Positions 10,352 through 41,202 of a stretch of 64,000 nucleotides of DNA are shown piece after piece. Within the stretch, counting starts at the first letter, position 1; every line of letters starts with the position of its first letter. A program made the position numbers and the translations under genes. The notes beneath the pieces were generated by a model. It made no database searches. It was not told where the DNA came from and saw nothing but the letters and a program-made list of their open reading frames with translations. The DNA is from Alphaproteobacteria bacterium (GTDB taxonomy: Bacteria; Pseudomonadota; Alphaproteobacteria; GCA-2731375), in NCBI GenBank assembly GCA_021776235.1, contig JAJFGG010000014.1, positions 1 through 64,000 on the forward strand, given 5' to 3'.

Positions 10352-11470
10352 CTATTCCGGCATGCCCGCCATGGCCACCGGGGGGTAATAGTAATCATCC
10401 CCCAGGGCATCCACCCGTTCCCAGAAATCAGCTCCGGCCGCCAGACCGGTTTCGTTGGGCTCCGCCGCCTGGCGCCAGATGTTCCACGAAGCCGGGTGCA
10501 GGCGCGCTGCCTCCGCCAGGTGCTCGCGGCCCTCGGCGGCCCGGTCTTGCCGCAACAAATACTGGCCCAGGCGAAAATGGCAATGGGCACGGGCAATATC
10601 GGCGTCGGGTGCCGCGGTCCGGGCGCGGGCCTGATCGGCGCTGAAAACATGGCTGCTTGCCGGCCCCAGCAGGGCCCAGTCCCGGACCGCGTTGACATAG
10701 GTGGCCTTGGCAGCCGCGGCGGTGGCCGTCTTGTCTTCCGGCACGGTCATGGTCGTCCGGTCCAGGGACCGGAAAGCCTCGTAAGCGCCGGCGTTTTCAG
10801 CGGGCCGTATGATACGGCCGTCCTCGTCGATCCATACTGCCTGTGGCACATTGACCATGTTGTATAACTCCGCCACCCGATGATCGCGGTCAATCAGTGC
10901 CGGATAGCTTGGCCCCGCCGCTTCGATCCAGGGGCGGGCAGCATCGTCCCGGCTGTCCATGGCGACGGTGATGATGATGAAATTCTGGTCCTGCAGTTCG
11001 TCGTAGAGTTTTTGCCACACGGACAAATCGTTACGACAGCCTCACCACGAGGCCCAGGTAGCCAGAAGAACCTTTTTGCCGCGATAATCCGACAGGCTAT
11101 GGGCCACACCGGCCAAATCCGGCAGGGTGAAATCCGGTGCCTCCAAAGACCGCAGGCTGGCTGCACGGTTGTCGGCGGCTTCGCCCAAAGCCCAGACATC
11201 GCCGTCCCGGCTACGGGCGGCCGGCATCCCCATATGGTCCCAGAAGGCCTTGAGGTTAACGTTGCCATCGGCCGCGAAGACCCCTTCGCGACCCTTCGGT
11301 ACCGGCACACAGACATCGCCGCGGCATAGCCCTTCAGGCCGCAATGACCACCCTGTCGCCGCCGCCGCCTCGTCGCGATCGAGCCAAAGGCCTTCCCCTT
11401 GACCCGGCCCCGGTCCGGCACGCACCTCAAATTCACCGAAACCGGAAAGTATTGTCGCCGTCGTCGCCAT
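10352..11470 (-). CDS. Candidate redoxin-type selenoprotein with in-frame TGA (Sec143)
   Basis: Two same-frame halves are separated by a single TGA at 11042-11044. Read through, they give a 372-residue protein. Residues 1-142 end in APDFTLPDLAGVAHSLSDYRG, then KKVLLATWASW; the TGA follows, then GCRNDLSVWQKLYDEL and a standard thioredoxin/AhpC-TSA continuation (FIIITVAMDSRD, NVPQAVWIDEDGRII) with a tetratricopeptide-like tail. In homologous redoxins the residue after ATWASW is the reactive cysteine, so the TGA sits exactly where Cys is expected and would encode selenocysteine next to a resolving Cys. A hairpin at the expected distance follows. Alternatives are a recent nonsense mutation or separate translation of the halves (ATG 11470; GTG 11026). 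Against decay, no other stop or frameshift is seen and both halves keep coherent family sequence. Confidence 0.78.
11000..11037 (-). promoter_or_regulatory. Putative bacterial SECIS element
   Basis: The stem-loop lies just downstream of the in-frame UGA (11044-11042), inside the coding sequence. The upper stem is UUUGUC (11027-11022) pairing with GGCAAA (11016-11011): six pairs including one G-U, with a five-base apical loop CGUGU. Below an asymmetric internal loop, GUCGUA (11037-11032) pairs perfectly with UACGAC (11005-11000). The apical loop begins 21 bases after the UGA and has a G in its first two positions, which agrees with what I recall of the bacterial SECIS model recognised by SelB. 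Pairing was done by hand; no folding energy was computed. Confidence 0.6.
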
Positions 11471-11625: not shown

Positions 11626-12009
11626 CTACGCCTCTGGGCCCCGCAAATAGCTGTCGGTGCCGTCGATCCAATCCTGGCGCGGCGGGGCGAATAGTTCGAT
11701 CACTTCCGCATCCGCCAACACTTCCGCCGAATGGGGCATATCGCCCGGAATGACCAATATCCCGCCGGCCCCGATATGGCGTATATCGGCGCCGTCGTCA
11801 CCGAAGCGAAATTCCATTTCACCGGCCAGCAAATAGGTGATCTGTTCGTTTCCGTGCTGATGTTGTGGCACCGAGACGCCAGCCGCCAGGCTGATCCGCG
11901 CCATCATCATCTGCTGCCCACAGACCAGCTGCCGGCGCATCCCCGCGCCGACCTGTTCCATGGTCACCTCGTCCAGAACAAGTTTCTGTACACCCGTCGC
12001 CTCGGTCAT
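11626..12009 (-). CDS. Cupin domain-containing protein
   Basis: A 127-residue single-domain cupin. Motif 1 is visible as VSVPQHQHGNEQITYLLAGEMEFRFG at about residues 45-70, with the H-x-H and the later Glu that normally bind a metal. Motif 2 (GGILVIPGDMPHSAEVL at about 82-98) supplies the second histidine. The N-terminal segment VTMEQVGAGMRRQLVCGQQMM is typical of small cupins annotated as quercetin-dioxygenase-like, but no substrate can be assigned. The gene ends about 155 bases upstream of the redoxin gene. The MFS transporter lies just upstream on the same strand (31 bases), so the pair may be co-transcribed. Confidence 0.88.
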   Translation of the reverse strand: MTEATGVQKLVLDEVTMEQVGAGMRRQLVCGQQMMMARISLAAGVSVPQHQHGNEQITYLLAGEMEFRFGDDGADIRHIGAGGILVIPGDMPHSAEVLADAEVIELFAPPRQDWIDGTDSYLRGPEA

Positions 12010-29605: not shown

Positions 29606-30772
29606 TCACTCGGACAAATTGCTCTCCTCCCGGGGCATCTTCAAGTCAAGCTCCGCCGCCCACAGCGGATGATGTTCACGGGCCCAGTTTTCATCGACAT
29701 CGCCCCAGGCCATGGCGTCGTAGGCGCCCTCCATGCCGATCGAGCCAAGATAGATATGCGCGATGATCACGATGATCATGATAATGCCGAGCACGGCATG
29801 CCAGGCGTGCAGAAGCTGCATTTCCTGCACGGCGGACAGGTCCGTGGGCAACGTGAAGCCGAGCAGATTGAGGCCGGCGAAGGTGTCGCTGAACGGCGTG
29901 AAGGTGAACGGAAATATCAGGCATATTCCGGAAAAACTCACGGAGGCGCCGGCCAGGATGACGAACCAGAAGATCATTTTCTGACCCGCATTGAAACGCC
30001 GTGCGGGCGGATGCACGCCGCCTGAAAACAGGCCGCCGCCCCGGGCCAGCCAGATCAGATCATGCCGGCTTGGCATGTTGTCACGGACCCACAGCAGCAG
30101 AATAAGCACCAGGCCGACGATAAAGCTGTAGCCGGTAAAATCATGCAGCCACTTGCCATAGGCCGTCACTTCGGTGAAGGCGTTGTGGCCCAGCAACGGC
30201 TTCAGCACATCGCGGCCATAGAGAATGTTCAGCCCGGTCACGGCCAGTACGATGAAACTGACGGCAACCAGCCAATGGGCAAACCGTTCGAAGGGTCTGA
30301 AGCGCAAAACGGCCCGCCCGGAAAACCCGGCTTCGATCCGGATGCGTCCCCGCAGCATGAAGAACAGGGCGAGAAGCGCGCAGATGCCGGACAGGCCCCA
30401 GATGCCGTATCGGGGCAAAAGATCTTCACGGAATTCTCGCCACCACTGGCCGCTGGCCTGGATCAGGACGCCGGCCTTGCGGTCGGGGATGGCGGTATGG
30501 CCGCGCCCGCCCTGGCGCAAAATGCGCCAGATTTCCGGGTCGTGCCGGGTTTCCGTCAGATTACTGGGAAACCCGCCCGTTGATTGCGCGCCAGCGCCAC
30601 CAGGTGGCGAGGCGGGTTGGGCCCAGGCTGTATCCGGTGGTGCGCCCGCGAGGACCATGAGCAGGAAAAGGGCGGCCGTGATAGCAAGGACACAGCGAAA
30701 GCGTCCCCCGCACCAGCCATTGGCGCGCGCCGCGGCGCGCGTGCCCACCTGATTGCGCGGTCTGCTCACCAC
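29606..30772 (-). CDS. Formate dehydrogenase-type cytochrome b (gamma) subunit
   Basis: A 388-residue membrane protein of the formate dehydrogenase gamma / cytochrome b561 family. It has an N-terminal signal or anchor helix (about residues 27-50, ending TAWA), a periplasmic-like linker, then four helices with heme-ligand histidines, including RPFERFAHWLVAVSFIVLAVTGLNI (about 178-202), KWLHDFTGY and LLHAWHAVLGIIMIIVIIAHIYLG. It would pass electrons from a periplasmic dehydrogenase to quinone. No catalytic FdhA or iron-sulfur FdhB gene is in the window, so its partner is elsewhere or it serves another enzyme. The GTG start overlaps the CBS-domain gene, which places it at the end of the nqrF operon. 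Confidence 0.85.
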   Translation of the reverse strand: MVSRPRNQVGTRAAARANGWCGGRFRCVLAITAALFLLMVLAGAPPDTAWAQPASPPGGAGAQSTGGFPSNLTETRHDPEIWRILRQGGRGHTAIPDRKAGVLIQASGQWWREFREDLLPRYGIWGLSGICALLALFFMLRGRIRIEAGFSGRAVLRFRPFERFAHWLVAVSFIVLAVTGLNILYGRDVLKPLLGHNAFTEVTAYGKWLHDFTGYSFIVGLVLILLLWVRDNMPSRHDLIWLARGGGLFSGGVHPPARRFNAGQKMIFWFVILAGASVSFSGICLIFPFTFTPFSDTFAGLNLLGFTLPTDLSAVQEMQLLHAWHAVLGIIMIIVIIAHIYLGSIGMEGAYDAMAWGDVDENWAREHHPLWAAELDLKMPREESNLSE

Positions 30773-31161
30773 AGGTCCGCAAGCGCTCTGAGGACGTCGT
30801 AGCGGCTGATCAAACCCACCAGACGGCTATCTTCGGTGACCGGAAACCGGCGATAGTGCGACTTGAGGAACAGATCAGCGACCTCGACGATGTCGCTGCC
30901 GGCGTCGATGGTCTCGACGTTTTTGCTCATGTAATCCGTGACCCGGCCGCCGCGATCCTTATGGTAGCTCGCGCTGAAGGCAACGTTGAGGCAATCCCGC
31001 GTCGTCAGGATACCAATAAGATTGCCGTTATCATCGACCACCGGTGTACTCGAAATCCTGTTGTCCACCAGCACCCTGATGGCCGCATGAATATTCGTCC
31101 CCGGCGCAATTGTGATGACGTCCGTCGTCATATAGTCCCTTGTCGACAAAGTCTGGATCAT
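30766..31161 (-). CDS. CBS-domain protein
   Basis: A 131-residue protein made of two CBS domains: residues about 7-65 (MTTDVITIAPGTNIHAAIRVLVDNRISSTPVVDDNGNLIGILTTRDCL) and about 78-130 (YMSKNVETIDAGSDIVEVADLFLKSHYRRFPVTEDSRLVGLISRYDVL). Such pairs bind adenosine nucleotides or NAD(H) and regulate partner proteins. Its ATG overlaps the nqrM stop (ATGA), and its stop overlaps the start of the cytochrome b gene, so it is co-translated with NQR assembly genes. A role in sensing energy state for Na+-NQR or the cytochrome is an inference. Confidence 0.9.
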   Translation of the reverse strand: MIQTLSTRDYMTTDVITIAPGTNIHAAIRVLVDNRISSTPVVDDNGNLIGILTTRDCLNVAFSASYHKDRGGRVTDYMSKNVETIDAGSDIVEVADLFLKSHYRRFPVTEDSRLVGLISRYDVLRALADLW

Positions 31162-31409
31162 GACTGTCTGGCCCGGGCAGGGGCGGGCTCCGTGTGCTGG
31201 CCCGGGATCTCTCGGCGCGGACAGGATTGCCCTTCACCCCGGCCGCGCCCTTGACGCAGCGGACAGATGCCGCACGTCGCGATTCCATGCACACCCCCGC
31301 CCAGCGTCGCGCAAGTCCCCTTCAATTCAGCGCCCCTGAACAGTGCCCCCACGGCCATCCCCAGCGCAGCCAAGCCCATGAATATGAAGGACAATACAAA
31401 AAGCTCCAT
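31158..31409 (-). CDS. nqrM: Na+-NQR maturation factor NqrM
   Basis: An 83-residue protein with one N-terminal membrane helix (MELFVLSFIFMGLAALGMAVG) and a cysteine-rich tail: ELKGTCATLGGG, then TCGICP and finally SCPRREIPG, giving four cysteines. This is the NqrM (DUF539) pattern. NqrM delivers or inserts the iron of the membrane-embedded Cys4 centre formed between NqrD and NqrE. An alternative TTG start at 31424 overlaps the apbE stop (TTGA). ATG 31409 has AGGA upstream and matches family length, so it is chosen. Its location between apbE and other nqr-linked genes supports the call. Confidence 0.85.
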   Translation of the reverse strand: MELFVLSFIFMGLAALGMAVGALFRGAELKGTCATLGGGVHGIATCGICPLRQGRGRGEGQSCPRREIPGQHTEPAPARARQS

Positions 31410-31420
31410 GGCGATCCTGT

Positions 31421-32485
31421 TCAAACGGCGAGAAACCGCTTGAACTCCCTTGTCGGCCGGTCGATCAGGCCGCCTTCGGTCCTGCTGATGAAAAATGCCG
31501 GAATGCCAGTGCGCTCAGCCAGCGCGGACCCGGCGTCGGGGCCAAGCACCATCAAGGCCGTGGACCATGCGTCGGCCTCTTCAGTGGTTGCGGCGATCAC
31601 CGTGACCGAGGCAAGGCCGTGACTGACCGGCGCGCCCGTTCGTGGATCGATGATATGCGAGTACCGCAGGCCCGCGGCCTCGAAGAAGTTGCGGTAGTCA
31701 CCAGAGGTCGCCACCGCGCCATCGCCAATATTGATCACCCGATGCGCGGTTCGCTGTCCCGCCACCGGTCGCTCTATGCCTATTCGCCAGGTGGCTTGCG
31801 TGGGCGCGGCGCGGCGGGCCCGCATGTCGCCGCCAATATCGACCAGAAAATGCTGCACACCGGCCCGGGCGAGGTAGTCCGTAATCCGGTCCACGGCAAA
31901 GCCTTTCCCGATGCCGGATAAATCCACAGTCAGGCCGGGTCTGCTTTTTCTGACCGCAGTCCCCGTCTCTTTGACTCTCAGGTGCTCATGGCCGGTGACG
32001 CCAAGCGCCGCGCCGATGCGTTTGTCGCCGCGTGAAGGCGCCGTCGATACCTTCGGACCGAAGCCCCAAAGATCCACCAGAGGGGCGACGGTCGGATCAA
32101 ATGCGCTGCCCGAAAGACGGCTGATGTCGAGCGACTTTGCCAACACGTGCCCAAGGTCCGGCGAAACCTCGCGCCATGAGGTGGCCGTTGTCCGGTTGAA
32201 CATCGAAAGTTCCGAGTCCGGACGGAACGTCGACATCTGGCGATTTATGGTCCCAAGAATTTCCACGACGCCGGCGTGAAGGTCGTCAAGCGCGGGCATT
32301 GGACGGCCGCCGGTCAACGTCACCCGGTAGCGGGTTCCCATGGTCGCGCCGGAAAAGCCTATGCGCCCGCCGCCGCTGCTGGCTTCATTGCAACCAAGCA
32401 GGGTCAAAAATGGTGCGGCACAGGCGAAGCGCCCGGCCTGTCCGAGAACCGCCCGTCTGGATAGTGTGCCTGGGGAGGAGATCAT
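31421..32485 (-). CDS. apbE: FAD:protein FMN transferase ApbE
   Basis: A 354-residue ApbE-family flavin transferase, which attaches FMN to the threonines of NqrB and NqrC. The N-terminus has a twin-arginine-like SRRAVLGQAG followed by a lipobox LLGC (about residue 32), consistent with an exported lipoprotein. The ApbE core includes GATMGTRYRVTL, TFRPDSELSMFNR, the DLSGIGKGFAVD motif (about 190-203) and the Mg-binding end ATTEEADAWSTALMVLG. It starts directly after the nqrF stop (TGA then ATG). Both target proteins are encoded in the same cluster. Confidence 0.92.
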   Translation of the reverse strand: MISSPGTLSRRAVLGQAGRFACAAPFLTLLGCNEASSGGGRIGFSGATMGTRYRVTLTGGRPMPALDDLHAGVVEILGTINRQMSTFRPDSELSMFNRTTATSWREVSPDLGHVLAKSLDISRLSGSAFDPTVAPLVDLWGFGPKVSTAPSRGDKRIGAALGVTGHEHLRVKETGTAVRKSRPGLTVDLSGIGKGFAVDRITDYLARAGVQHFLVDIGGDMRARRAAPTQATWRIGIERPVAGQRTAHRVINIGDGAVATSGDYRNFFEAAGLRYSHIIDPRTGAPVSHGLASVTVIAATTEEADAWSTALMVLGPDAGSALAERTGIPAFFISRTEGGLIDRPTREFKRFLAV

Positions 32486-33709
32486 TCAGCCTCCAAAATC
32501 ATCGTAGACTATGTTTTCAGGGTCGACACCCAAACCGTCCAGCATCTGAAGTGCCGCCCTTAGCATCATCGGTGGACCGCAAAGGTAATATTCACACGTC
32601 TCGGGCGCCGGGTGATCCTTGAGGTAATCCTGGTAAAGAATATCGTGGATAAACCCGATCCGGCCGGTCCAGTTGTTTTCAGGTCTAGCATCGGAAAGCG
32701 CCGTGAACCATGCAAAATTATCGTATTCCGCCTGCAGGGCATCGAACTCATCGACGTAAAACAACTCCCGCCGGCTTCTGGCGCCGTACCAGAAGGTGAT
32801 CTTGCGCCGGGACTTCCGCACTTTCAGCTGATCCATGATATGGGACCGCATGGGCGCCATACCGGCACCGCCGCCGATGAAGACCATTTCGTTTTCCGTA
32901 TCGGCCGCGAAAAAATTGCCGAAGGGCCCCGAAACCGAGACTGTGTCGCCTTGCTTGAGAGAGAAAATATAGGACGATACGGCGCCGGGCGGGACATCGT
33001 CGGCCATTTCAGGCGGTGGAATGGCGATCCTGACGTCGAGCATGATGATCTGCTTTTCGTCCGAACTGTTGGCCATGGAATAGGCCCGGCTTTCCGCTTT
33101 GTTCGAGGTTGATGTGTGGCGCCAGAGATCGAGCCGGTCCCACTCGTCCCTGTAGCCTGGCGCGATCTGGAAATCGGCAAACCGCGCACTGTAGGGCGGC
33201 GCCGTGATCTGCACATAGCTGCCCGCCCGGAAGCGCATTTCTTCCCCCGGCGGCAGCTCAAGCACGAGTTCCTTGATCATGGTGGTAACGTTTTCGTTCG
33301 AGCGAACAATGCAGTCCCACTGCGCGACGCCGAACGCTTCGTCGGACACCCGGACCGCGATGTCCTGCTTCATGGAAACCTGACAAGCGAGGCGCACGCC
33401 GGCCCGCACCTCGCGTTTTGTCACCCGCGTCAATTCGATCGGCAGGATCGCGCCGCCGCCCGTGAGCACCACGACGCGGCATTGCCCGCAGGTGCCCTTG
33501 CCGCCACAACCCGACGGCAGGTGTATGCCCGCGTCCGCCAAGGCATCAAGCAGCGCGCCGCCGGCGGCCGTGGTCAGAGGCTCGCCATCGTTGACAACCA
33601 GTTGTATCTCTCCGCTGGGCACAAGCCTGAAACGGACCGCCAGGACAACGGCGACCAGCGCCATGACGATGGCCGTGAACAACAGAACACCCAGGCCGAT
33701 CTCGTACAT
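32486..33709 (-). CDS. nqrF: Na+-translocating NADH:quinone oxidoreductase subunit F
   Basis: A 407-residue NADH-oxidising subunit. One N-terminal membrane helix (residues 3-27) is followed by a plant-type [2Fe-2S] ferredoxin domain with cysteines at about 68, 74, 77 and 109 (SGCGGKGTCGQC and RLACQ). Next is a ferredoxin-NADP reductase-like domain with the FAD motif RAYSMANSS (about 208-216), the NADH motif FIGGGAGMAPMRSHI, and the C-terminal CGPPMM and YDDFGG endings typical of NqrF. It is the electron entry point of NQR. A 156-base gap with a palindrome separates it from nqrE, so it may have its own promoter or a processing site. Confidence 0.95.
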   Translation of the reverse strand: MYEIGLGVLLFTAIVMALVAVVLAVRFRLVPSGEIQLVVNDGEPLTTAAGGALLDALADAGIHLPSGCGGKGTCGQCRVVVLTGGGAILPIELTRVTKREVRAGVRLACQVSMKQDIAVRVSDEAFGVAQWDCIVRSNENVTTMIKELVLELPPGEEMRFRAGSYVQITAPPYSARFADFQIAPGYRDEWDRLDLWRHTSTSNKAESRAYSMANSSDEKQIIMLDVRIAIPPPEMADDVPPGAVSSYIFSLKQGDTVSVSGPFGNFFAADTENEMVFIGGGAGMAPMRSHIMDQLKVRKSRRKITFWYGARSRRELFYVDEFDALQAEYDNFAWFTALSDARPENNWTGRIGFIHDILYQDYLKDHPAPETCEYYLCGPPMMLRAALQMLDGLGVDPENIVYDDFGG

Positions 33710-33765
33710 CAGCGGTCCCCGACCCTTGAGTGAAAATGCCTAGGCCATTTTCGAGCCTGACCTAG

Positions 33766-33835
33766 CCGCCTGCTCCTCCGTCCCGGCCCTCCACAGGGTA
33801 CCATTGATGGGTGGCCGGGACGGGGGAGCGGGCGG
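33766..33835. repeat. Second copy of the REP-like palindrome, inside the nqr cluster
   Basis: The arms at about 33766-33793 and 33808-33835 are complementary over 28 positions with three or four mismatches. The right arm TGGGTGGCCGGGA is shared with the palindrome at 15791. It occupies the nqrE-nqrF gap and could be an RNA processing, stabilising or attenuating hairpin in the nqr transcript. Confidence 0.75.
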
Positions 33836-33865
33836 CCCGGAGATTCAATCAAAATTGAAAACGGC

Positions 33866-34477
33866 TCAGTCAATCTGAATCCCCGAAAAAGTCATAAAGC
33901 CCATGGACATCAAGCCAACCACGATGAACGTTATGCCCGTACCCTTGAGGCCGTCGGGGATATCGCTGTATTTCAGCTTTTCCCGGATGCCCGCAAGGGC
34001 CACGATGGCGACCGCCCAGCCAAACCCACTGCCAAACCCGTAAACCACGCTTTCAGCGAAGTCATAACGGCGGTCGGCCATGAACAGCGAGCCCCCCAGG
34101 ATGGCGCAGTTCACCGTGACGAGGGGCAAAAATATGCCCAGGCCATGGTAAAGGCCCGGGAAATACCGCTCCAAGGTCATCTCCAGGATCTGCACCATCG
34201 CCGCGATGACGCCGATGAAGGTGATCAGGGCCAGAAAACTCAGATCGGCATCAGGCAGACCGGCCCACGCCAAGGCGCCTTCAGCCAGGAAAGCGCCATA
34301 GATCAGGTTGTTCAGCGGTACGCTTACCGATTGCACAACCAAGACTGCCAGACCCAGGCCAACGGCCGTCTCGACCCGCCTGGAGACGGCAAGAAACATG
34401 CACATGCCCAGGAAGAAGGACAGCGCCAGATTCTCGACAAAGGCCGAGGCAATGAAAAGGTTAAGGTAACCGCTCAT
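33866..34477 (-). CDS. nqrE: Na+-NQR subunit E
   Basis: A 203-residue membrane subunit with six helices. It begins [26 protein letters not shown], where the Cys of FLGMC corresponds to one ligand of the membrane iron site shared with NqrD. A second cysteine lies in [11 protein letters not shown]. The family pattern continues with [26 protein letters not shown]. The frame is open to 34561, but ATG 34477 matches family length and overlaps the nqrD stop by four bases. Confidence 0.95.
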
Positions 34478-35145
34478 CTCGCCTCCCCGGTCTCGACCGC
34501 TGGCAGAACAGCAAACTCCTCCGGCTCGACCTGCTCCACCCGCCAGGACCGCAAGGCCCAAATCAGAAAGCCAATGAGAAAGAAGGCGCTTGGCGGCAGC
34601 AGCATCAAGGCCGCCGGGTGATACCAGCCGCCGGCGGACACGGTGCGGAAGACCTCCGCACCCAGCAGCGTTCCGGAACCGAACAGCTCGCGGACCGAAC
34701 CGACCAGGATCAGAATCCAGCTATAGCCCAGGCCGTTGCCCAAGCCATCCAGCACGCTGAGACGGACATTGTTCTTCATGGCGAATGCTTCGGCCCGGCC
34801 CATGATGATGCAGTTCGTGACGATCAGGCCAACGAAGACCGAAAGCTCCCGGCTGAGGCCATAGGCATAGGCTTTCAGGATCTGGTCCACGACGATGACC
34901 AGCGAGGCGATAATGGTAATCTGCAGGATCAGGCGGACATGGCGGGGCATGTGATTGCGGATCAGGCTGATCGTGGCATTGGATAGTGTTATGACCACGG
35001 TCACCGCCGCCGCCATGATCAAGGCGGTCGCCAGGGTCTTGGTGACCGCCAGCGCCGAACACAGGCCCAGGATTTGCAGGGTGATCGGGTTTTCGTTGAT
35101 CAACGGATCAATAAACGCCCGCCGCATGGACATCGCCGTGCTCAT
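34474..35145 (-). CDS. nqrD: Na+-NQR subunit D
   Basis: A 223-residue membrane subunit with six helices that pairs with NqrE. The start [35 protein letters not shown] contains the conserved GLCSAL cysteine, and [18 protein letters not shown] holds the second; both contribute to the iron site. The frame is open well upstream, but ATG 35145 overlaps the nqrC stop by four bases and gives the family N-terminus. The protein ends with an acidic tail after the last helix, and its stop overlaps the nqrE start. Confidence 0.95.
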
Positions 35146-35996
35146 CGTGCCGCTCTCCGTAGTTTCTTCAGATATGGCCCAAAGCCGTGCCCGCCCAGCC
35201 AATAGCGCAGCAGATTGGTGACGCCCTGGCCGGTCCAGGTGGCGCCTGTCAGTCCGTCGACCTGGTGACGCGCTTCGGGGGTGCCGGGCACGACCGGGCC
35301 GCGGGCGACCCCCAGGCCGACCTCGCCATCGGCGTCCCAGACCGCCTTGCCGGCCCACAGCCGGCGCCAGGCCGGATCGTCGATCAAGGCGCCAAGGCCA
35401 GGTGTTTCGCCGTGCTCGTAGAATGCCAGGCCGATTACCGTCCTGGCATCGCCCGAGAGCCCGACATAGCCGTACAGCGTAGAACCAAAACCGCGGCCAT
35501 ATACGGGCAGCACCACGAGTTGCGGCCTGCCATCCCGCAACAACAGATGCACCGCCGCATATTTCGCACGAGTCCTGATCTGCGCCAGGTCTTCGCCGGG
35601 TGGAATGTTGATGCTTTGCGCCGGATCATTGTCCATCCCGCGTTGATCGAATGCCGCCGGATCCTTTGCCTCGGCATAATTACCAGTGGCCAGTTCCACG
35701 ACCCGCGCATCGAGATCGGCTATGTCAATGGCGCGCCGGCCAGCGCCGCCGGGGGCGTTTTCCAGGATTACAGAGATCTGCTGCATTTGCGCGAACTGCT
35801 TGTTGGCGATCTGCTTTGGCCGTAGCAGAACCGCTGACCCGGCGACCAGCACCGAAGCAAAGATGCAGACCAGCAGCGTGACGATGACCGCCTTGGCCGG
35901 ACTGTCGTTCGGTAGCGCCCGGAAGCGCCGCAAAAGAGAGCTTGCCCCGGCGCGGTCGCCGCCGTGCTGGCCACCATGTTGGTCGTCGTCAGGCAC
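35142..35996 (-). CDS. nqrC: Na+-NQR subunit C
   Basis: A 284-residue subunit with one N-terminal membrane helix (about residues 36-58) and a periplasmic FMN-binding domain. The covalent FMN threonine is in [13 protein letters not shown], with Thr at about residue 253. The family variant here is TGAT rather than the commoner SGAT. Conserved [14 protein letters not shown] and [13 protein letters not shown] segments precede it. The extra N-terminal 30 residues are His-, Gln- and Gly-rich ([12 protein letters not shown]). It overlaps nqrB by eight bases and nqrD by four. Confidence 0.95.
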
Positions 35997-37092
35997 TGCG
36001 CCTCGCCCTCCGTCTGATGTTGGCGTACATCACCCCATAATCGATCAGTGGCGCCAGAATGTTGCCGAACAGAATGGCGAACATGACGCCATCGGGGTGG
36101 GTGGAATTGGTCACCCGGATCAGGATCACCAAGGCGCCGATCAACAAGCCGTAAATCCAGCGGCCGCTGTCCGTCATAGGGGCGCTGACAGGGTCGGTCG
36201 CCAGAAAAACCATGCCAAACGCGAAACTGCCCAGCACCAGGTGCCAATGCCAGGCCAGCCCGGCGAAGGCATTGGCGGGATCGCCGCCCTGATTGAACAG
36301 CAGCGCCGCGCCAATCATGCCAATCAGCATGCCGGCCATGATGCGGGTAGAGGCGACCCGTGTCGCGATCAGCAGGGCAGCGCCCAGGATACAGGCCAGT
36401 GTCGAACTGGCGCCGATCGGTCCGGGCACCAGTCCCAGGAACGACTGCAGCCAGGTGGAGCCGATCCATGCCAGGGCTTGCGCGCCGCCATCCGCCACCG
36501 TCTGCAAGGGCGTCGCGCCGCTTAATCCATGCACCGCCCAGGCCGTTTCACCCACCATTTGCGCGGGATATGTGACATAGAGGAAGGCTAGGCCGGTCAG
36601 CGCCGGGTTGAGAAAATTCTTGCCGGTACCGCCAAAGATCTCCTTGCCGACGACAATGCCGAAACTCATACCCAGAACCACCTGCCAGAGCGGCACCGCG
36701 GGCGGCAGGCTGAGGGTAAACAGCAGGGCGACCAACACATAATCGCCACGACGACCGCCGCCTCGCCCCCGCACGAAAATGGTTTCCCAGATGCCGGCCG
36801 AGATCAGGGCCGCGGCAAAGACCGGCAGGAAGACCAGCAGGCCGTGGCTGACCGAGGCCAGGAAACTGGCCGGGTTGTAGCCGATGCCAAGGACGGCGAT
36901 GACCGCGCCATGCCAGCCCGGTGCGGATTGCATACCGGCCTGGAATAACAGCACGTTGGCCTGGTATCCGGTGTTGTAAATGCCGACCAGGACACAGGGC
37001 ATAAGCGCAGCGATGACAATATTCATCGCCCGCGAAAGGTTCATGGCATCGCGGACATGGGGCGCGCGCAGGGTCGCAGTACCTGTCACCAT
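35989..37092 (-). CDS. nqrB: Na+-NQR subunit B (short N-terminus)
   Basis: A 367-residue membrane subunit with about ten helices that holds riboflavin, the Na+ path and a covalent FMN. The FMN threonine is in VHGLSGATPLQ, Thr at about residue 194. Conserved APHVRDAMNLSRAM, VGIYNTGYQ and GKNFLNPALTG are present. Most NqrB proteins are roughly 400-415 residues; this one lacks about 40 residues before APHVRD, a stretch that is cytoplasmic in relatives. The start overlaps the nqrA stop (37086-37092), so a longer N-terminus is not easily hidden; the short form seems genuine. Confidence 0.94.
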   Translation of the reverse strand: MVTGTATLRAPHVRDAMNLSRAMNIVIAALMPCVLVGIYNTGYQANVLLFQAGMQSAPGWHGAVIAVLGIGYNPASFLASVSHGLLVFLPVFAAALISAGIWETIFVRGRGGGRRGDYVLVALLFTLSLPPAVPLWQVVLGMSFGIVVGKEIFGGTGKNFLNPALTGLAFLYVTYPAQMVGETAWAVHGLSGATPLQTVADGGAQALAWIGSTWLQSFLGLVPGPIGASSTLACILGAALLIATRVASTRIMAGMLIGMIGAALLFNQGGDPANAFAGLAWHWHLVLGSFAFGMVFLATDPVSAPMTDSGRWIYGLLIGALVILIRVTNSTHPDGVMFAILFGNILAPLIDYGVMYANIRRRARRSA

Positions 37093-38420
37093 TCTTTTTC
37101 CACCCGGTCGAGCATCTGTCTCAACAAGCCGCCATGATCAATCCTGCTGGCACAGACAACGCTGCAAAGCGCCAGGTCTTCCTCGTCGAGCTCCAGGCAA
37201 CCCAGCGCCTGTGCCATATCCGAATCGCCGACCATCAGCGCACGAAGCAGCGGTGTCGGCAGCACGTCAAGCGGCATCACCCGCTCATAGCCACCCATGG
37301 GAACCAGGGGGGCCGCGGCGCCCCGTTGCGCGGTGGTCAGCGCGAACCTGGATCTGGCAGGCCGATTGGTCGCCAGCATGTTGTATATCGTGAAGCCATG
37401 CGAGGCCGCTTCGGTAGCCTCGACGTCTTCGGCAAGAACCGAAACCTGACCGTGAAAGCGGCCGAGATAGGCCACCTCGCCGACGGCCCGGCGGCCGGAC
37501 AAAATGGAACCGGAAATGACCCGGCAATGGCCGTCGTCCAGTTCGCCCCTGAGCAGATCGGCGGTATTCGCGCCCAGACGGGTGCGGACCAGCCGGGGCC
37601 GCCTGACGGGCGGCCCGGCGATCGAAATGGTCCGCTCGACCGAAAGCCGGCCCGTTGTGAACAGCATTCCAATGGCAATGACATCCTGATAGTTGAGGTG
37701 CCAGACGGTTTTCTTCGCACTTACCGGCTCCAGGAAATGGATATGGGTTCCCACCAGCCCGGCGGGATGCGGACCGGCGAACTCGACGGCCAGGACATTC
37801 GGCCCCGCACCTTTGGGAAGTCCGGCGCGGGGCGCCTGGCAGACATAGACATTGCCGTCGGTCAGATGGGAAATAGCCGTGAGGCCGTTTGCGAAGGCGC
37901 CGCGGTTGGCCCCGACAATCACCTCCGCCTGCGCCGCCAGCGGGTTGCTGTCCATGGCCGTGACAAAGATCGCCGCCGGCGGGGCGTCAGGGTCCGCAAG
38001 CCGGCTGTAGGGCCGCGTTCGCAGCGCAGTCCAAAGCCCCGACTGCAGCAACGCGTCCGTCACCTGGTCGCGGCGAAGCGTGGCCAGTGCCGCTTCCGGC
38101 CAGGAAGGGAATGTTGTCTCGTCGTCGCCCTCCAGCTTGATGACAACGGACGCCAACGCGCGCCGTGCGCCGCGGTTAACCGCATCGACGCGACCGCTGC
38201 CCGGCGCCGTAAACAAAATTCGCGGGTTTGTCCGGTCCGTGAAAAGCGCTTGTCCGAGCTTTACCCGTTCGCCGGCCTCGACCAGCATCCGCGGCCGCAG
38301 GCCGGCATGGTCAGCACCGATCAGGGCGACGCTGGAGACCGCGGCGCCGTCCGTGATCAGCTGTTCCGGTGCTCCCGCCAACGGCAGGTCCAGGCCTTTG
38401 ACAATTCGTATGGGTATCAT
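37086..38420 (-). CDS. nqrA: Na+-NQR subunit A
   Basis: A 444-residue peripheral subunit. It begins MIPIRIVKGLDLPLAGAPEQ, the normal NqrA start, and includes GADHAGLRPRMLVEAGERVKLGQ, FTAPGSGRV and GTHIHFLEP. The frame is open to 38444, but the ATG at 38420 gives the family N-terminus, with GAGG upstream. NqrA is the first gene of the cluster, and translation runs into nqrB through a seven-base overlap. It likely participates in ubiquinone binding. The P-type ATPase gene ends 95 bases upstream on the same strand. Confidence 0.95.
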   Translation of the reverse strand: MIPIRIVKGLDLPLAGAPEQLITDGAAVSSVALIGADHAGLRPRMLVEAGERVKLGQALFTDRTNPRILFTAPGSGRVDAVNRGARRALASVVIKLEGDDETTFPSWPEAALATLRRDQVTDALLQSGLWTALRTRPYSRLADPDAPPAAIFVTAMDSNPLAAQAEVIVGANRGAFANGLTAISHLTDGNVYVCQAPRAGLPKGAGPNVLAVEFAGPHPAGLVGTHIHFLEPVSAKKTVWHLNYQDVIAIGMLFTTGRLSVERTISIAGPPVRRPRLVRTRLGANTADLLRGELDDGHCRVISGSILSGRRAVGEVAYLGRFHGQVSVLAEDVEATEAASHGFTIYNMLATNRPARSRFALTTAQRGAAAPLVPMGGYERVMPLDVLPTPLLRALMVGDSDMAQALGCLELDEEDLALCSVVCASRIDHGGLLRQMLDRVEKEW

Positions 38421-38514
38421 GGCGCCTCGGGGTTCCATTCGCACAAACGAATCTTCTGCCCTTCACCAGGATATTTCAACCATTTCAAGCGGTGGCGGCA
38501 CGCACTTGGTTGTG

Positions 38515-41202
38515 TCACCAGGTCAGCCATTTCAGGACAAACGGGTTCTCCTTACGTACGAACACGCGGCGCAGTTCGTCGCCCAGCAGAATCAGAATCG
38601 CAAATGGAATGCTCAAGGCGATTTGCCACGGCGCAAGCGGTGCGGTTCCGAAAAAGGTATTAAGAATAGGTACATAGGAAATGAGCATCAGCAGCAGCAG
38701 CTCCGTGCCGATGCCCAGAAGAACCAGCCGGTTGGTCAGGACGCCGACCGTCAGAAGGCTCTGCTGCCGTGTCCGGCAGATGATGACATCGGCAATCTGG
38801 CAAATAATGATCGATGCGAAAAAGCCGGTGATCGCCGTCCGGTACAGCGGGTCGGTGGACGGCAGGTCTTGGCCCCATTGCCACCCGCCCGCATAGAGAA
38901 TGACGAAATAGCTGAAAAATCCCGCCGCCGCCTGAATCATGCCAATAATGCCATAGCTCATGAGCAGCAAATTCCCCGAAAGAAGGCGTTCCCCGCGCTT
39001 ACGCGGTTTATTCCGCATGATATCCGTTTCGGGCGGTTCCGCACCGAGACCCAGGGCCGGGAGGATGTCGGTGCCAAGGTCGATACTGAGGATCAAGACA
39101 ACGGTCAGCGGCAAGGGAATATCGAGCAGGACATAAGCCAGAAACGGCAGTATTTGGGGAATATTGCTGGTCAGTATGTAGGCGATGAACTTCTTGATAT
39201 TGTCGAAAATCGCGCGCCCCTCTTCGACGGCGCTGACGATGGTGGCGAAATTGTCGTCCATCAGCACCATGTTGCTTGCTTCCTTGGCGACATCCGTGCC
39301 CATGAGCCCCATGGCGACGCCCATATCCGCGTTCTTCAACGCCGGTGCATCATTGACGCCATCGCCGGTAACGGTGACGATTTCACCCAGTGCCTGATAG
39401 GCCTGCACCACACGCAGTTTTTGCGTCGGCGCAATGCGCGCGAAGATCAATTCGTCCTCTGTTTCGAGGGTTTCAGCCAGCTCGGAATCGCTCATGGCCG
39501 TCAGCTCGCTACCGTGGACGATCCTGCCATGACCTGAAATCAGACCGATCTGGCGTCCAATGGTTTCCGCCGTAAGACCGAAATCACCGGTCAGCATGAC
39601 GACCTTTATGCCGGCCGTGTGGCATTTGGCCAGCGCGCCGGGCACCTCCGCCCGGGGCGGATCGATCATGCCGATGAGGCCGATGAATGTATAACCCGCC
39701 TCGGGAACATCCCCGCGCTGGGCCGGGCGCCAGGCGAAGCCAAGGCCGCGCTCGCCCCGGCCCGCCAGCATGCGATAGTCATCGATCACCTGGCTGCGTC
39801 GCGTAAGGTCGAGCGGCAGCACCTCGCCGTCAAGCATGATCTGATCGCACATTTCCAAGACCACTTCCGGGGCGCCTTTAAGGTGGGCCCGCGGCTGCCC
39901 GCCGTCCGGTGGCGCCGTCACGGTGATCATCCGCTTGACGGTCGAATTGAACGGCTGCTCGGCAATTTTCGTCTCGCGGCGGACCGCTTCAAGATCGGCA
40001 AGGTCATTGACGCACAGTAGAAGCGCACCGTCGGTTGCGTCGCCGGAAAAGCCGCCGTCCGAAAGATAGGCGTTGTTGCACAGGGCCATGGCCCGAAGGA
40101 GATGTTGCAAAACGGGATCGTCGGCCAACTCCTGGCCGCCAGTTGAATAGGCCCGCCCGCCCAGCATAATGGTATTCACGCCCAGTCTGTTCTGAGTCAG
40201 GGTGCCGGTCTTGTCGGTGCAGATGACCGTCGTGCTGCCAAGGGTTTCGACACTCTCCAGGTTCTTGATCAGGGCATTTTTGCGCGCCATGCGCTTGCTC
40301 GCCATGGTCAGCGCCAGGGTCACCGTCGGCAGCAGGCCTTCCGGCACGTTGGCGACGATAATGCCGATGGCGAAGATCAGACTGGCAATGGCGCCATTGC
40401 CGATCCCCACGCTGACCAGAAAGAACGCGACACCGAGGAATATCGCGATGGCGCTGATCACCTTGATGAAATACCTGAGCTCCTTGTGGATCGGCGTTTC
40501 CACCTCTGCCGTGGCCTTGGTCAGCGCGACGATGCCGCCGATCTGCGTTGCCATGCCGGTATTGCAGACCAGGATCCGGCCCTCGCCATTCTGTACAAGG
40601 GTGCCGGAAAACACCATGTTGGCGCTTTCCAGGATGCTCTTCTGGCTGAGCACCGGTTCAAGCAATTGCGGTTCGCTCTCGCCCGTCAGACTGGACATAT
40701 CCACTTTCAGCCCGCTGCCCTCGATCAGCCTGCCGTCCGCCGGGACACGGTCTCCCTCGTGCAGAATTATGACGTCTCCCGGCACCAGTTTGCCGGCCTC
40801 CACCTCATGCGCGGCGCCGTCGCGCAATACCGTAACCATGGCCGGAAGCATTTTCCTGAAGCTGTCCAGGATCTGCTCGCTCTGGTGTTCCTGCAGGTAT
40901 GTGAACACGGCGTTCAACAGGACGACGGCAAACAGCGCGATGGCGATATAGAGATTTCCCTGTTCCGGATCCAGCTGCTCGGCCACAACCGCGAGCAGGC
41001 CGCCAACCATCAGCAGCAGAGCAAAGAAATTCTTGAACTGGAGCAGAAACTTGACGAATTCGGGCACGTCCCCGCGCACCCGCAATTCGTTGCGCCCATG
41101 CGCCTGCAACCGGCGTTGCGCCTCCGGCTCGCTCAGCCCTTGTCTGGAACTATCCAATTGCCGAAACAGATTGCTAATGCTCAATTTGTGAAACTCTGAC
41201 AT
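38515..41202 (-). CDS. P-type cation ATPase resembling Na+/K+-ATPase alpha subunits
   Basis: An 895-residue P2-type ATPase. It has the actuator motif SSLTGESEPQ (TGES at about 173-176), the helix-4 motif NVPEGLLPTVTLALT (about 285-299), the phosphorylation site CTDKTGTLTQNRL (Asp at about 330), the nucleotide-site KGAPEVVLEMC, and the hinge TGDGVNDAPALKNADMGVAMG. The VPEGLL and SLTGESEPQ spellings match the IIC (Na+/K+ or H+/K+) branch better than SERCA-like IIA pumps (VPEGLP is usual in IIA). AAGGAATAT precedes the ATG. It lies just upstream of nqrA on the same strand, which suggests sodium handling, but ion specificity is inferred. No beta subunit is seen. Confidence 0.9.
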   Translation of the reverse strand: MSEFHKLSISNLFRQLDSSRQGLSEPEAQRRLQAHGRNELRVRGDVPEFVKFLLQFKNFFALLLMVGGLLAVVAEQLDPEQGNLYIAIALFAVVLLNAVFTYLQEHQSEQILDSFRKMLPAMVTVLRDGAAHEVEAGKLVPGDVIILHEGDRVPADGRLIEGSGLKVDMSSLTGESEPQLLEPVLSQKSILESANMVFSGTLVQNGEGRILVCNTGMATQIGGIVALTKATAEVETPIHKELRYFIKVISAIAIFLGVAFFLVSVGIGNGAIASLIFAIGIIVANVPEGLLPTVTLALTMASKRMARKNALIKNLESVETLGSTTVICTDKTGTLTQNRLGVNTIMLGGRAYSTGGQELADDPVLQHLLRAMALCNNAYLSDGGFSGDATDGALLLCVNDLADLEAVRRETKIAEQPFNSTVKRMITVTAPPDGGQPRAHLKGAPEVVLEMCDQIMLDGEVLPLDLTRRSQVIDDYRMLAGRGERGLGFAWRPAQRGDVPEAGYTFIGLIGMIDPPRAEVPGALAKCHTAGIKVVMLTGDFGLTAETIGRQIGLISGHGRIVHGSELTAMSDSELAETLETEDELIFARIAPTQKLRVVQAYQALGEIVTVTGDGVNDAPALKNADMGVAMGLMGTDVAKEASNMVLMDDNFATIVSAVEEGRAIFDNIKKFIAYILTSNIPQILPFLAYVLLDIPLPLTVVLILSIDLGTDILPALGLGAEPPETDIMRNKPRKRGERLLSGNLLLMSYGIIGMIQAAAGFFSYFVILYAGGWQWGQDLPSTDPLYRTAITGFFASIIICQIADVIICRTRQQSLLTVGVLTNRLVLLGIGTELLLLMLISYVPILNTFFGTAPLAPWQIALSIPFAILILLGDELRRVFVRKENPFVLKWLTW

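What the first reader, a model, noticed from the sequence alone, without database searches (positions are those of the whole stretch)
10352..11470. Probable selenoprotein: a redoxin with UGA at the active-site cysteine
One TGA (11042-11044) interrupts an otherwise intact redoxin frame. Sequence before it ends in ATWASW and sequence after it starts GCR, exactly where the family has its reactive Cys. A random nonsense mutation would rarely hit that codon and leave everything else clean. Read-through gives a 372-residue protein with Sec143 and a neighbouring Cys. Automated annotation would split this into two wrong genes. Redoxin-type selenoproteins are known in bacteria; this fusion with a 90-residue N-terminal region and a TPR-like tail may be less described.
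Basis: partly seen in the sequence, partly recalled or inferred. Interest (0 to 1): 0.88.

Follow-up and report, generated by a model that had tools for sequence, protein, structure and literature searches.

The report
Real selenoprotein of a known family
The stop codon inside this redox-protein gene is almost certainly read as the rare amino acid selenocysteine, because every relative examined keeps the same codon and a matching RNA hairpin; the protein family is already catalogued, so the find is sound but mostly ordinary.

Summary
Read-through gives 372 residues with Sec143, Gly144, Cys145.

All 41 distinct homologues examined, down to about 35% identity, carry TGA at exactly this codon. 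Both sides are under purifying selection. The codons just downstream show the strongest synonymous constraint in the gene and form a conserved hairpin that fits the published bacterial SECIS criteria. The genome holds selA, selB and selD. tRNA-Sec was not found in this 174-contig assembly, but 9 of 9 same-genus genomes searched have it.

It is not a new kind. It matches NCBIfam NF041054 (305.9 bits, cut-off 300) and fits 'Prx-like (UGC-containing)', reported from ocean metagenomes in 2008.

Modestly new: no Cys form of the long family turned up in the genomes sampled; 11 of 11 next-nearest relatives use CxxC; the N-terminal domain, with two invariant cysteines, matched no known fold convincingly. 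Best guess: a cytosolic thioredoxin-fold oxidoreductase using a Sec143-Cys145 selenenylsulfide.

The parts
10352..11470 (-). selenoprotein gene, UGC-type ResA-like redoxin (WAxxUGC_long family), 372 residues with Sec143, stop TAG at 10352-10354
   Evidence: read-through frame; NCBIfam NF041054 305.9 bits over residues 30-366; Pfam AhpC-TSA 74.9 bits
11042..11044 (-). in-frame TGA, Sec143 codon
   Evidence: TGA in 41 of 41 distinct homologues
10999..11041 (-). bacterial SECIS-like element; upper stem (5 core pairs plus one) and 5-nt loop at 11011-11027; in this sequence the predicted fold adds a 7-bp lower stem
   Evidence: RNAalifold hairpin at columns 18-23 with 29-34 of alignment A1; fold of the window's own stretch; pair counts; synonymous constraint; resampling control
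11036..11038 (-). Cys145 codon, presumed resolving partner of Sec143 (U-G-C motif)
   Evidence: Cys in 41 of 41 homologues
11171..11470 (-). N-terminal domain (residues 1-100), with Cys49 and Cys54 invariant
   Evidence: Cys49 and Cys54 in 40 of 41, the other row having a gap there; AlphaFold2 pLDDT 90.0; no Pfam match in any of 38 rows scanned; best Foldseek E 0.33
10355..10750 (-). C-terminal helical region (about residues 241-372), TPR-like but below Pfam's cut-off
   Evidence: helices 245-271, 278-284, 290-307, 311-324, 329-334, 347-355; TPR_14 18.2 bits, cut-off 23.5

Best explanation
A selenoprotein of the WAxxUGC (UGC-containing Prx-like/TlpA-like) family. UGA at codon 143 is decoded as selenocysteine by SelB with Sec-tRNA-Sec, directed by a hairpin whose loop starts 20 nt after the UGA. 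Shown by sequence: codon conservation, hairpin, purifying selection on both sides, selA/selB/selD in the genome, predicted thioredoxin fold. Inferred: decoding by this machinery; Sec143 is the attacking residue and Cys145 resolves it through a Sec-Gly-Cys selenenylsulfide; the enzyme reduces disulfides or peroxides in the cytosol (no signal peptide apparent by eye; no predictor was run). Also inferred: the N-terminal CX4C pair (Cys49/Cys54) relays electrons to the active site or is structural.
For: TGA in 41 of 41 distinct homologues; 25 of 25 family matches, in 22 of 385 alphaproteobacterial genomes, hold a TGA. dN/dS against nine of the 40 other homologues 0.08-0.34 before and 0.08-0.26 after the codon. 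Residues 150-154 show the highest synonymous excess of 323 five-codon windows with enough data (z 4.4), with Val151 written GTG in 34 of 35 Val rows. Core hairpin: 99.0% of cells paired; shuffles reach this in 0 of 500 and the covariation score in 1 of 500; outermost pair CG 23, UG 10, UA 6, other 2. All five core pairs in 39 of 41 sequences against a mean of 14.5 and a maximum of 23 in 1000 synonymous resamplings. Published bSECIS criteria (PMC13188914, passages): G in the first two loop positions 41 of 41; MFE of the 47 nt after the UGA at or below -7.5 in 40 of 41. selA 583.5 bits and selB adjacent on C166; selD 381.6 bits with its own in-frame TGA in GGGUGSK. Fold: pLDDT 94.2, ResA and DsbE structures as nearest matches (Foldseek E 1.4e-11; 3gl3_C Z 15.0, rmsd 1.9, 137 aligned).
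Against: No tRNA-Sec was found in the window's own assembly: the two RF01852 matches over the cut-off are tRNA-Ser genes by ARAGORN (150 of 914 first-look candidates were scored), and the tRNA-Sec of a same-genus genome finds nothing better than E 0.95. A missing stretch is the likely reason: 9 of 9 same-genus genomes searched have tRNA-Sec, and the alpha/beta hydrolase gene beside it in relatives has no close match here either (best 53% identity; in relatives the flank plus tRNA is 71-77% identical at DNA level). This is not proof. Covariation is thin, because the protein code fixes most of the hairpin: the counts of pairs with changes on both sides and of pair types are no better than shuffles (491 of 500 reach them), and sliding the partners by +3 gives 2 such pairs against 1. 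Substrate and electron donor are not shown.
Confidence: 0.96

Rival explanations
1. The TGA is a nonsense mutation or sequencing error in a Cys-type redoxin gene, and the gene is broken.
For: A single stop in an otherwise open frame; no selC found in the assembly. Two relatives do show broken frames elsewhere (L117, L031).
Against: The same TGA at the same codon in 41 of 41 homologues, purifying selection downstream of it, and a conserved hairpin.
Confidence: 0.01
2. UGA is read through, but by a near-cognate or suppressor tRNA inserting Cys, Trp or another residue, not Sec.
For: No tRNA-Sec found in the window's assembly.
Against: selA, selB and a Sec-containing selD are present, tRNA-Sec is present in 9 of 9 same-genus genomes searched, the hairpin lies at SECIS distance, and the position aligns with the first Cys of the CxxC of ResA.
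Confidence: 0.03
3. The protein is a selenoprotein but chiefly a peroxidase (peroxiredoxin-like) rather than a disulfide reductase.
For: Pfam AhpC-TSA is the best domain match (74.9 bits); alkyl hydroperoxide reductase and peroxiredoxin structures are among the matches (5enu_A Z 13.2; others Z about 12-13).
Against: The nearest structures and sequences are ResA and DsbE-type disulfide oxidoreductases (E 8e-16; Z 14-15). That a U-x-C pair suits disulfide exchange better than the TxxC/TxxU motif of peroxiredoxins is recalled, not tested.
Confidence: 0.35

Closest known systems
NCBIfam NF041054 WAxxUGC_long, 'ResA-like WAxxUGC motif-containing protein'
   Same: Whole length (profile 8-353 of 354), WASWUGC motif, N-terminal region, redoxin and C-terminal region; 305.9 bits against a cut-off of 300. 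All 38 homologues scanned match it at E up to 1e-10.
   Different: Lies at the edge of the model. In raw-frame genome scans 6 of 25 alphaproteobacterial matches pass the cut-off and the window's own scores 299.5. The best-scoring members (L100, L101, 486-494 bits) lie on a separate long branch in the tree.
Prx-like (UGC-containing) selenoprotein of the Global Ocean Sampling study (PMC2398784, passages read); 'UGC-containing TlpA disulfide reductase family' in the 2026 review (PMC13188914, passages read)
   Same: pfam00578 (2008) or cd02966 (2026) domain and UGC motif, predicted selenoprotein.
   Different: The GOS table counts 46 selenoproteins and 855 Cys homologues; no Cys form with the full long architecture was seen here. 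I could not compare sequences with theirs, as supplements could not be opened.
ResA/TlpA/DsbE thiol-disulfide oxidoreductases
   Same: Thioredoxin fold over residues 106-270; Sec143 aligns with the first Cys of CxxC.
   Different: CxxC is replaced by UGC, one residue shorter; an extra N-terminal domain and helical C-terminal region; scores far below the ResA model's cut-off (75 against 170 bits).

Membership tests
Bacterial selenoprotein | in-frame UGA conserved at a redox-active position in homologues | tested here: met
   TGA in 41 of 41; aligned with the first Cys of CxxC in ResA-type relatives
Bacterial selenoprotein | bSECIS: 3-9 nt loop, upper stem of 4-16 bp, G in first two loop positions, 16-37 nt from UGA, MFE at or below -7.5 (criteria from PMC13188914) | tested here: met
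   5-nt loop, 5 core pairs in 39 of 41 and a sixth in 32 of 41, loop starts 20 nt after the UGA; G 41 of 41; MFE criterion 40 of 41
Bacterial selenoprotein | selA, selB, selD in the genome | tested here: met
   583.5 bits; 414.3 bits with neighbours in the frame; 381.6 bits
Bacterial selenoprotein | tRNA-Sec (selC) in the genome | tested here: inconclusive
   not found in the assembly (none by ARAGORN or Rfam at E up to 0.1 around selAB); present in 9 of 9 same-genus genomes searched
Bacterial selenoprotein | Sec residue seen in the protein | not testable with these tools
   needs 75Se labelling or mass spectrometry
NCBIfam NF041054 WAxxUGC_long | score at or above curated cut-off of 300 | tested here: met
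   305.9 bits with Cys written for Sec; 299.5 in the raw genome scan, so borderline
NCBIfam NF041054 WAxxUGC_long | WAxxUGC motif | tested here: met
   W139-A-S-W-U143-G-C145
Prx-like (UGC-containing), GOS 2008 | pfam00578 plus UGC | tested here: met
   74.9 bits, cut-off 26; UGC; direct comparison with the GOS sequences not possible
ResA (NCBIfam PRK03147) | curated score of 170 and CxxC active site | tested here: not met
   75 bits; UGC instead of CxxC
TPR proteins (C-terminal tail) | Pfam TPR gathering score | tested here: not met
   TPR_14 18.2 bits against 23.5; TPR_2 16.1 against 27

The most novel reading that the evidence does not exclude
A Sec-only redoxin family: moving from CxxC to a three-residue U-G-C active site made selenium obligatory, so no Cys orthologue survives, and an otherwise unknown N-terminal domain with a conserved CX4C pair works as a built-in relay that recycles the Sec-Cys selenenylsulfide. 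The family would then be a self-contained two-module selenoenzyme, found here in alpha- and gammaproteobacteria.
Probability: 0.2. Interest if true: 0.5.

Novelty: new member of a known kind. Interest (0 to 1): 0.3.

Why it matters
It confirms a selenoprotein gene that ordinary annotation can miss or split, since the family model's cut-off sits right at its score. It also points to a family in which Sec may be indispensable, a useful test case for why some enzymes do not revert to cysteine. The N-terminal domain with two invariant cysteines has no convincing structural relative among solved structures and is a concrete target for structural work.

Tried and rejected
The finding's stretch on the + strand is not an open frame; the reading is on the minus strand. 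Rfam on the window: no match at gathering scores; no tRNA in the window. A second TGA-bearing redoxin match in the own genome (C115) and two in relatives (L035, L038) are CxxC proteins whose TGA is the terminal stop. tRNA-Sec nested in selB, as described for alphaproteobacteria (PMC8124441, part 1 of 3 read), was looked for around selAB: nothing by ARAGORN or Rfam at E up to 0.1. A loose anticodon-arm pattern gave 5 hits around selAB and selD, none tRNA-Sec-like by eye; a genome-wide anticodon/T-arm pattern gave 8 hits, none tRNA-like by eye. The tRNA-Sec locus of a relative gave only 16 fragments of 64-78% identity in the own genome. Operon-based function: no neighbour is conserved across the loci compared (window plus 16). 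Plasmids (27 records) and phages (6 records) hold only partial relatives under 60% identity, none covering 80% of the query; their active-site motifs were not examined. N-terminal domain: no Pfam match in 38 rows, one PDB sequence match at E 0.23, best Foldseek E 0.33, best VIA Z 4.6, an usher N-terminal domain, rmsd 3.7 over 82 residues; none convincing. A 13-pair two-stem structure has the lower stem in only 64.8% of cells, so it is not claimed for the family. In one search the codon printed for minus-strand loci was wrong (strand not handled) and the Sec column and a numbering shift of one inflated the scan; replace them. Rows dropped: L121 from the synonymous scan and the tree; L031, L117 and L121 from the protein alignment, so 38 of 41 rows. 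'WAxxUGC' is in no paper held.

Full report
Observation. The gene is on the minus strand. Under the standard bacterial code it breaks into 142- and 224-residue open frames; with TGA at 11042-11044 read as Sec it is one frame of 372 residues...KKVLLATWASW-U143-GCRNDLSVWQ.... Pfam AhpC-TSA spans residues 110-220 at 74.9 bits, and PDB sequences of ResA and related oxidoreductases align with the site opposite the first Cys of CxxC.

Homologues. A search of 61 genomes (the window's own and 60 relatives) gave long-family members in 11, each with one TGA; within the genus 9 of 11 genomes have it, and G003 and G005 do not. A scan of genome contigs gave 17 loci, of which 16 belong to the family and one (L068) is a CxxC TlpA relative with TGC; the scanned peptide patterns did not include the site. 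A search of 385 alphaproteobacterial genomes with NF041054 at E up to 1e-30 gave 25 matches in 22 genomes, all with a TGA, one with an extra TAG. Two of them carry other lesions (L117, L031). A search of 398 genomes across the phylum at E up to 1e-18 gave 13 matches: 2 family members with TGA and 11 shorter proteins (frames of 169-215 aa) without a stop, which match only the redoxin part of the profile; all 11 carry CxxC. So no Cys form of the long family was seen. These searches sample the collections and score at most five candidates per genome, so rare Cys forms cannot be excluded.

Selection and RNA element. Compared with nine of the other homologues, dN/dS is 0.08-0.34 before and 0.08-0.26 after the TGA: the downstream part is translated and kept. 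Among 735 pairs of sequences under 75% identity (40 rows; L121 left out), the five-codon window at residues 150-154 has the highest excess of identical codons (z 4.4, first of 323 windows with enough data); Val151 is GTG in 34 of 35 Val rows. RNAalifold finds one hairpin, columns 18-23 with 29-34. In the 5-pair core 99.0% of cells pair (0 of 500 shuffles reach this) and the covariation score is reached by 1 of 500 shuffles; but the number of pairs with changes on both sides (1) and of pair types (3) are no better than shuffles (491 of 500), and a slide of +3 columns gives 2 such pairs. The outermost core pair is CG in 23, UG in 10, UA in 6 and unpaired in 2, where the two sides are positions of the Leu149 and Gln153 codons free to vary synonymously. 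All five pairs hold in 39 of 41 sequences, against a mean of 14.5 and a maximum of 23 in 1000 resamplings of synonymous codons; this control ignores relatedness. The hairpin meets the bacterial SECIS criteria quoted in PMC13188914, with one of 41 sequences just short on folding energy. The evidence for the element thus rests more on codon constraint than on covariation.

Machinery. selA and selB lie side by side on contig C166 and selD on C46; selD has its own in-frame TGA in HGGGUGSK. tRNA-Sec was not found. Of the 15 genomes, the 9 same-genus relatives (G001-G009) have a 96-base tRNA-Sec with anticodon TCA; the other 5 relatives (G015-G019) show only matches below 48 bits, and G010 was not in that call. 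In relatives an alpha/beta hydrolase gene lies beside it (shown for L076; flank conserved in the 9 loci); the window's genome has only 49-53% identical or weaker matches to it. A missing stretch of this 174-contig assembly is the simplest explanation, but it is an inference.

Structure and mechanism. AlphaFold2 with 38 rows gives pLDDT 94.2 and pTM 0.91. Residues 106-270 match DsbE and ResA structures (3gl3_C Z 15.0, rmsd 1.9, 137 aligned; Foldseek E 1.4e-11). The N-terminal domain (pLDDT 90.0) has Cys49 and Cys54 in every row that covers them (40 of 41) and no convincing known fold among solved structures. From this I infer a cytosolic selenol/thiol oxidoreductase in which Sec143 attacks and Cys145 resolves; substrate and reductant are unknown. 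Neighbours do not settle function: six same-genus loci have a glyoxalase-superfamily gene just upstream, the window a cupin gene, and five gammaproteobacterial loci a glyoxalase-superfamily and a P450 gene downstream on the other strand (Pfam run on 2 of the 6, on 1 of the 5, and on the cupin).

What is known. NCBIfam NF041054 names this family. The 2008 ocean-sampling paper lists 'Prx-like (UGC-containing)', pfam00578, with 46 selenoproteins and 855 Cys homologues (PMC2398784, passages); the 2005 Sargasso Sea paper already lists one UXC sequence among Prx-like proteins (PMC1088965, passages). Tables of the 2022 and 2026 reviews carry it, citing prediction papers in the rows seen (PMC9312934 and PMC13188914, passages). 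I saw no functional study in the listings of three searches (no paper, 20 of 103 listed, 7 of 7), which cover open-licence papers only.

Verdict. A genuine selenoprotein; a new member of a known kind. Interest is modest, resting on the apparent absence of Cys forms and on the unplaced N-terminal domain.

Noticed in passing
G000:C46:22266-23192 (L018): selD of this genome is itself a selenoprotein gene (HGGGUGSK, in-frame TGA). A second SelD match lies in a 760-residue frame on C25 without a stop (L019), perhaps a fusion; not examined.
   Followed up: partly
L001, L002 (own genome): Ordinary tRNA-Ser genes pass Rfam's tRNA-Sec gathering score (49.3 and 47.3 bits against 47), so RF01852 hits just over the cut-off should not be taken as selC without checking the anticodon.
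   Followed up: yes
one search matches, L100-L124: 19 of 25 alphaproteobacterial matches to NF041054 fall below its cut-off of 300 bits in raw-frame scans, so many members may be annotated as two fragments. Genomes G104, G136 and G239 each carry two matches.
   Followed up: partly
window 11626-12009 (-) and upstream of the gene in L052, L053, L054, L060, L065, L066: The gene just upstream is cupin-like in the window but glyoxalase-superfamily in six same-genus loci (Pfam run on two); in L055-L059 a glyoxalase-superfamily and a P450 gene follow on the other strand (Pfam run on L055).
   Followed up: partly
G008 (L031) and G324 (L117): Two homologues have broken frames elsewhere (a frame break and an extra TAG), assembly errors or decaying copies.
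   Followed up: no
window 29606-38444 (-): A run of genes that by eye looks like a Na+-translocating NADH:quinone reductase (Nqr) cluster with an ApbE-like gene, next to a cation P-type ATPase (38515-41202).
   Followed up: no
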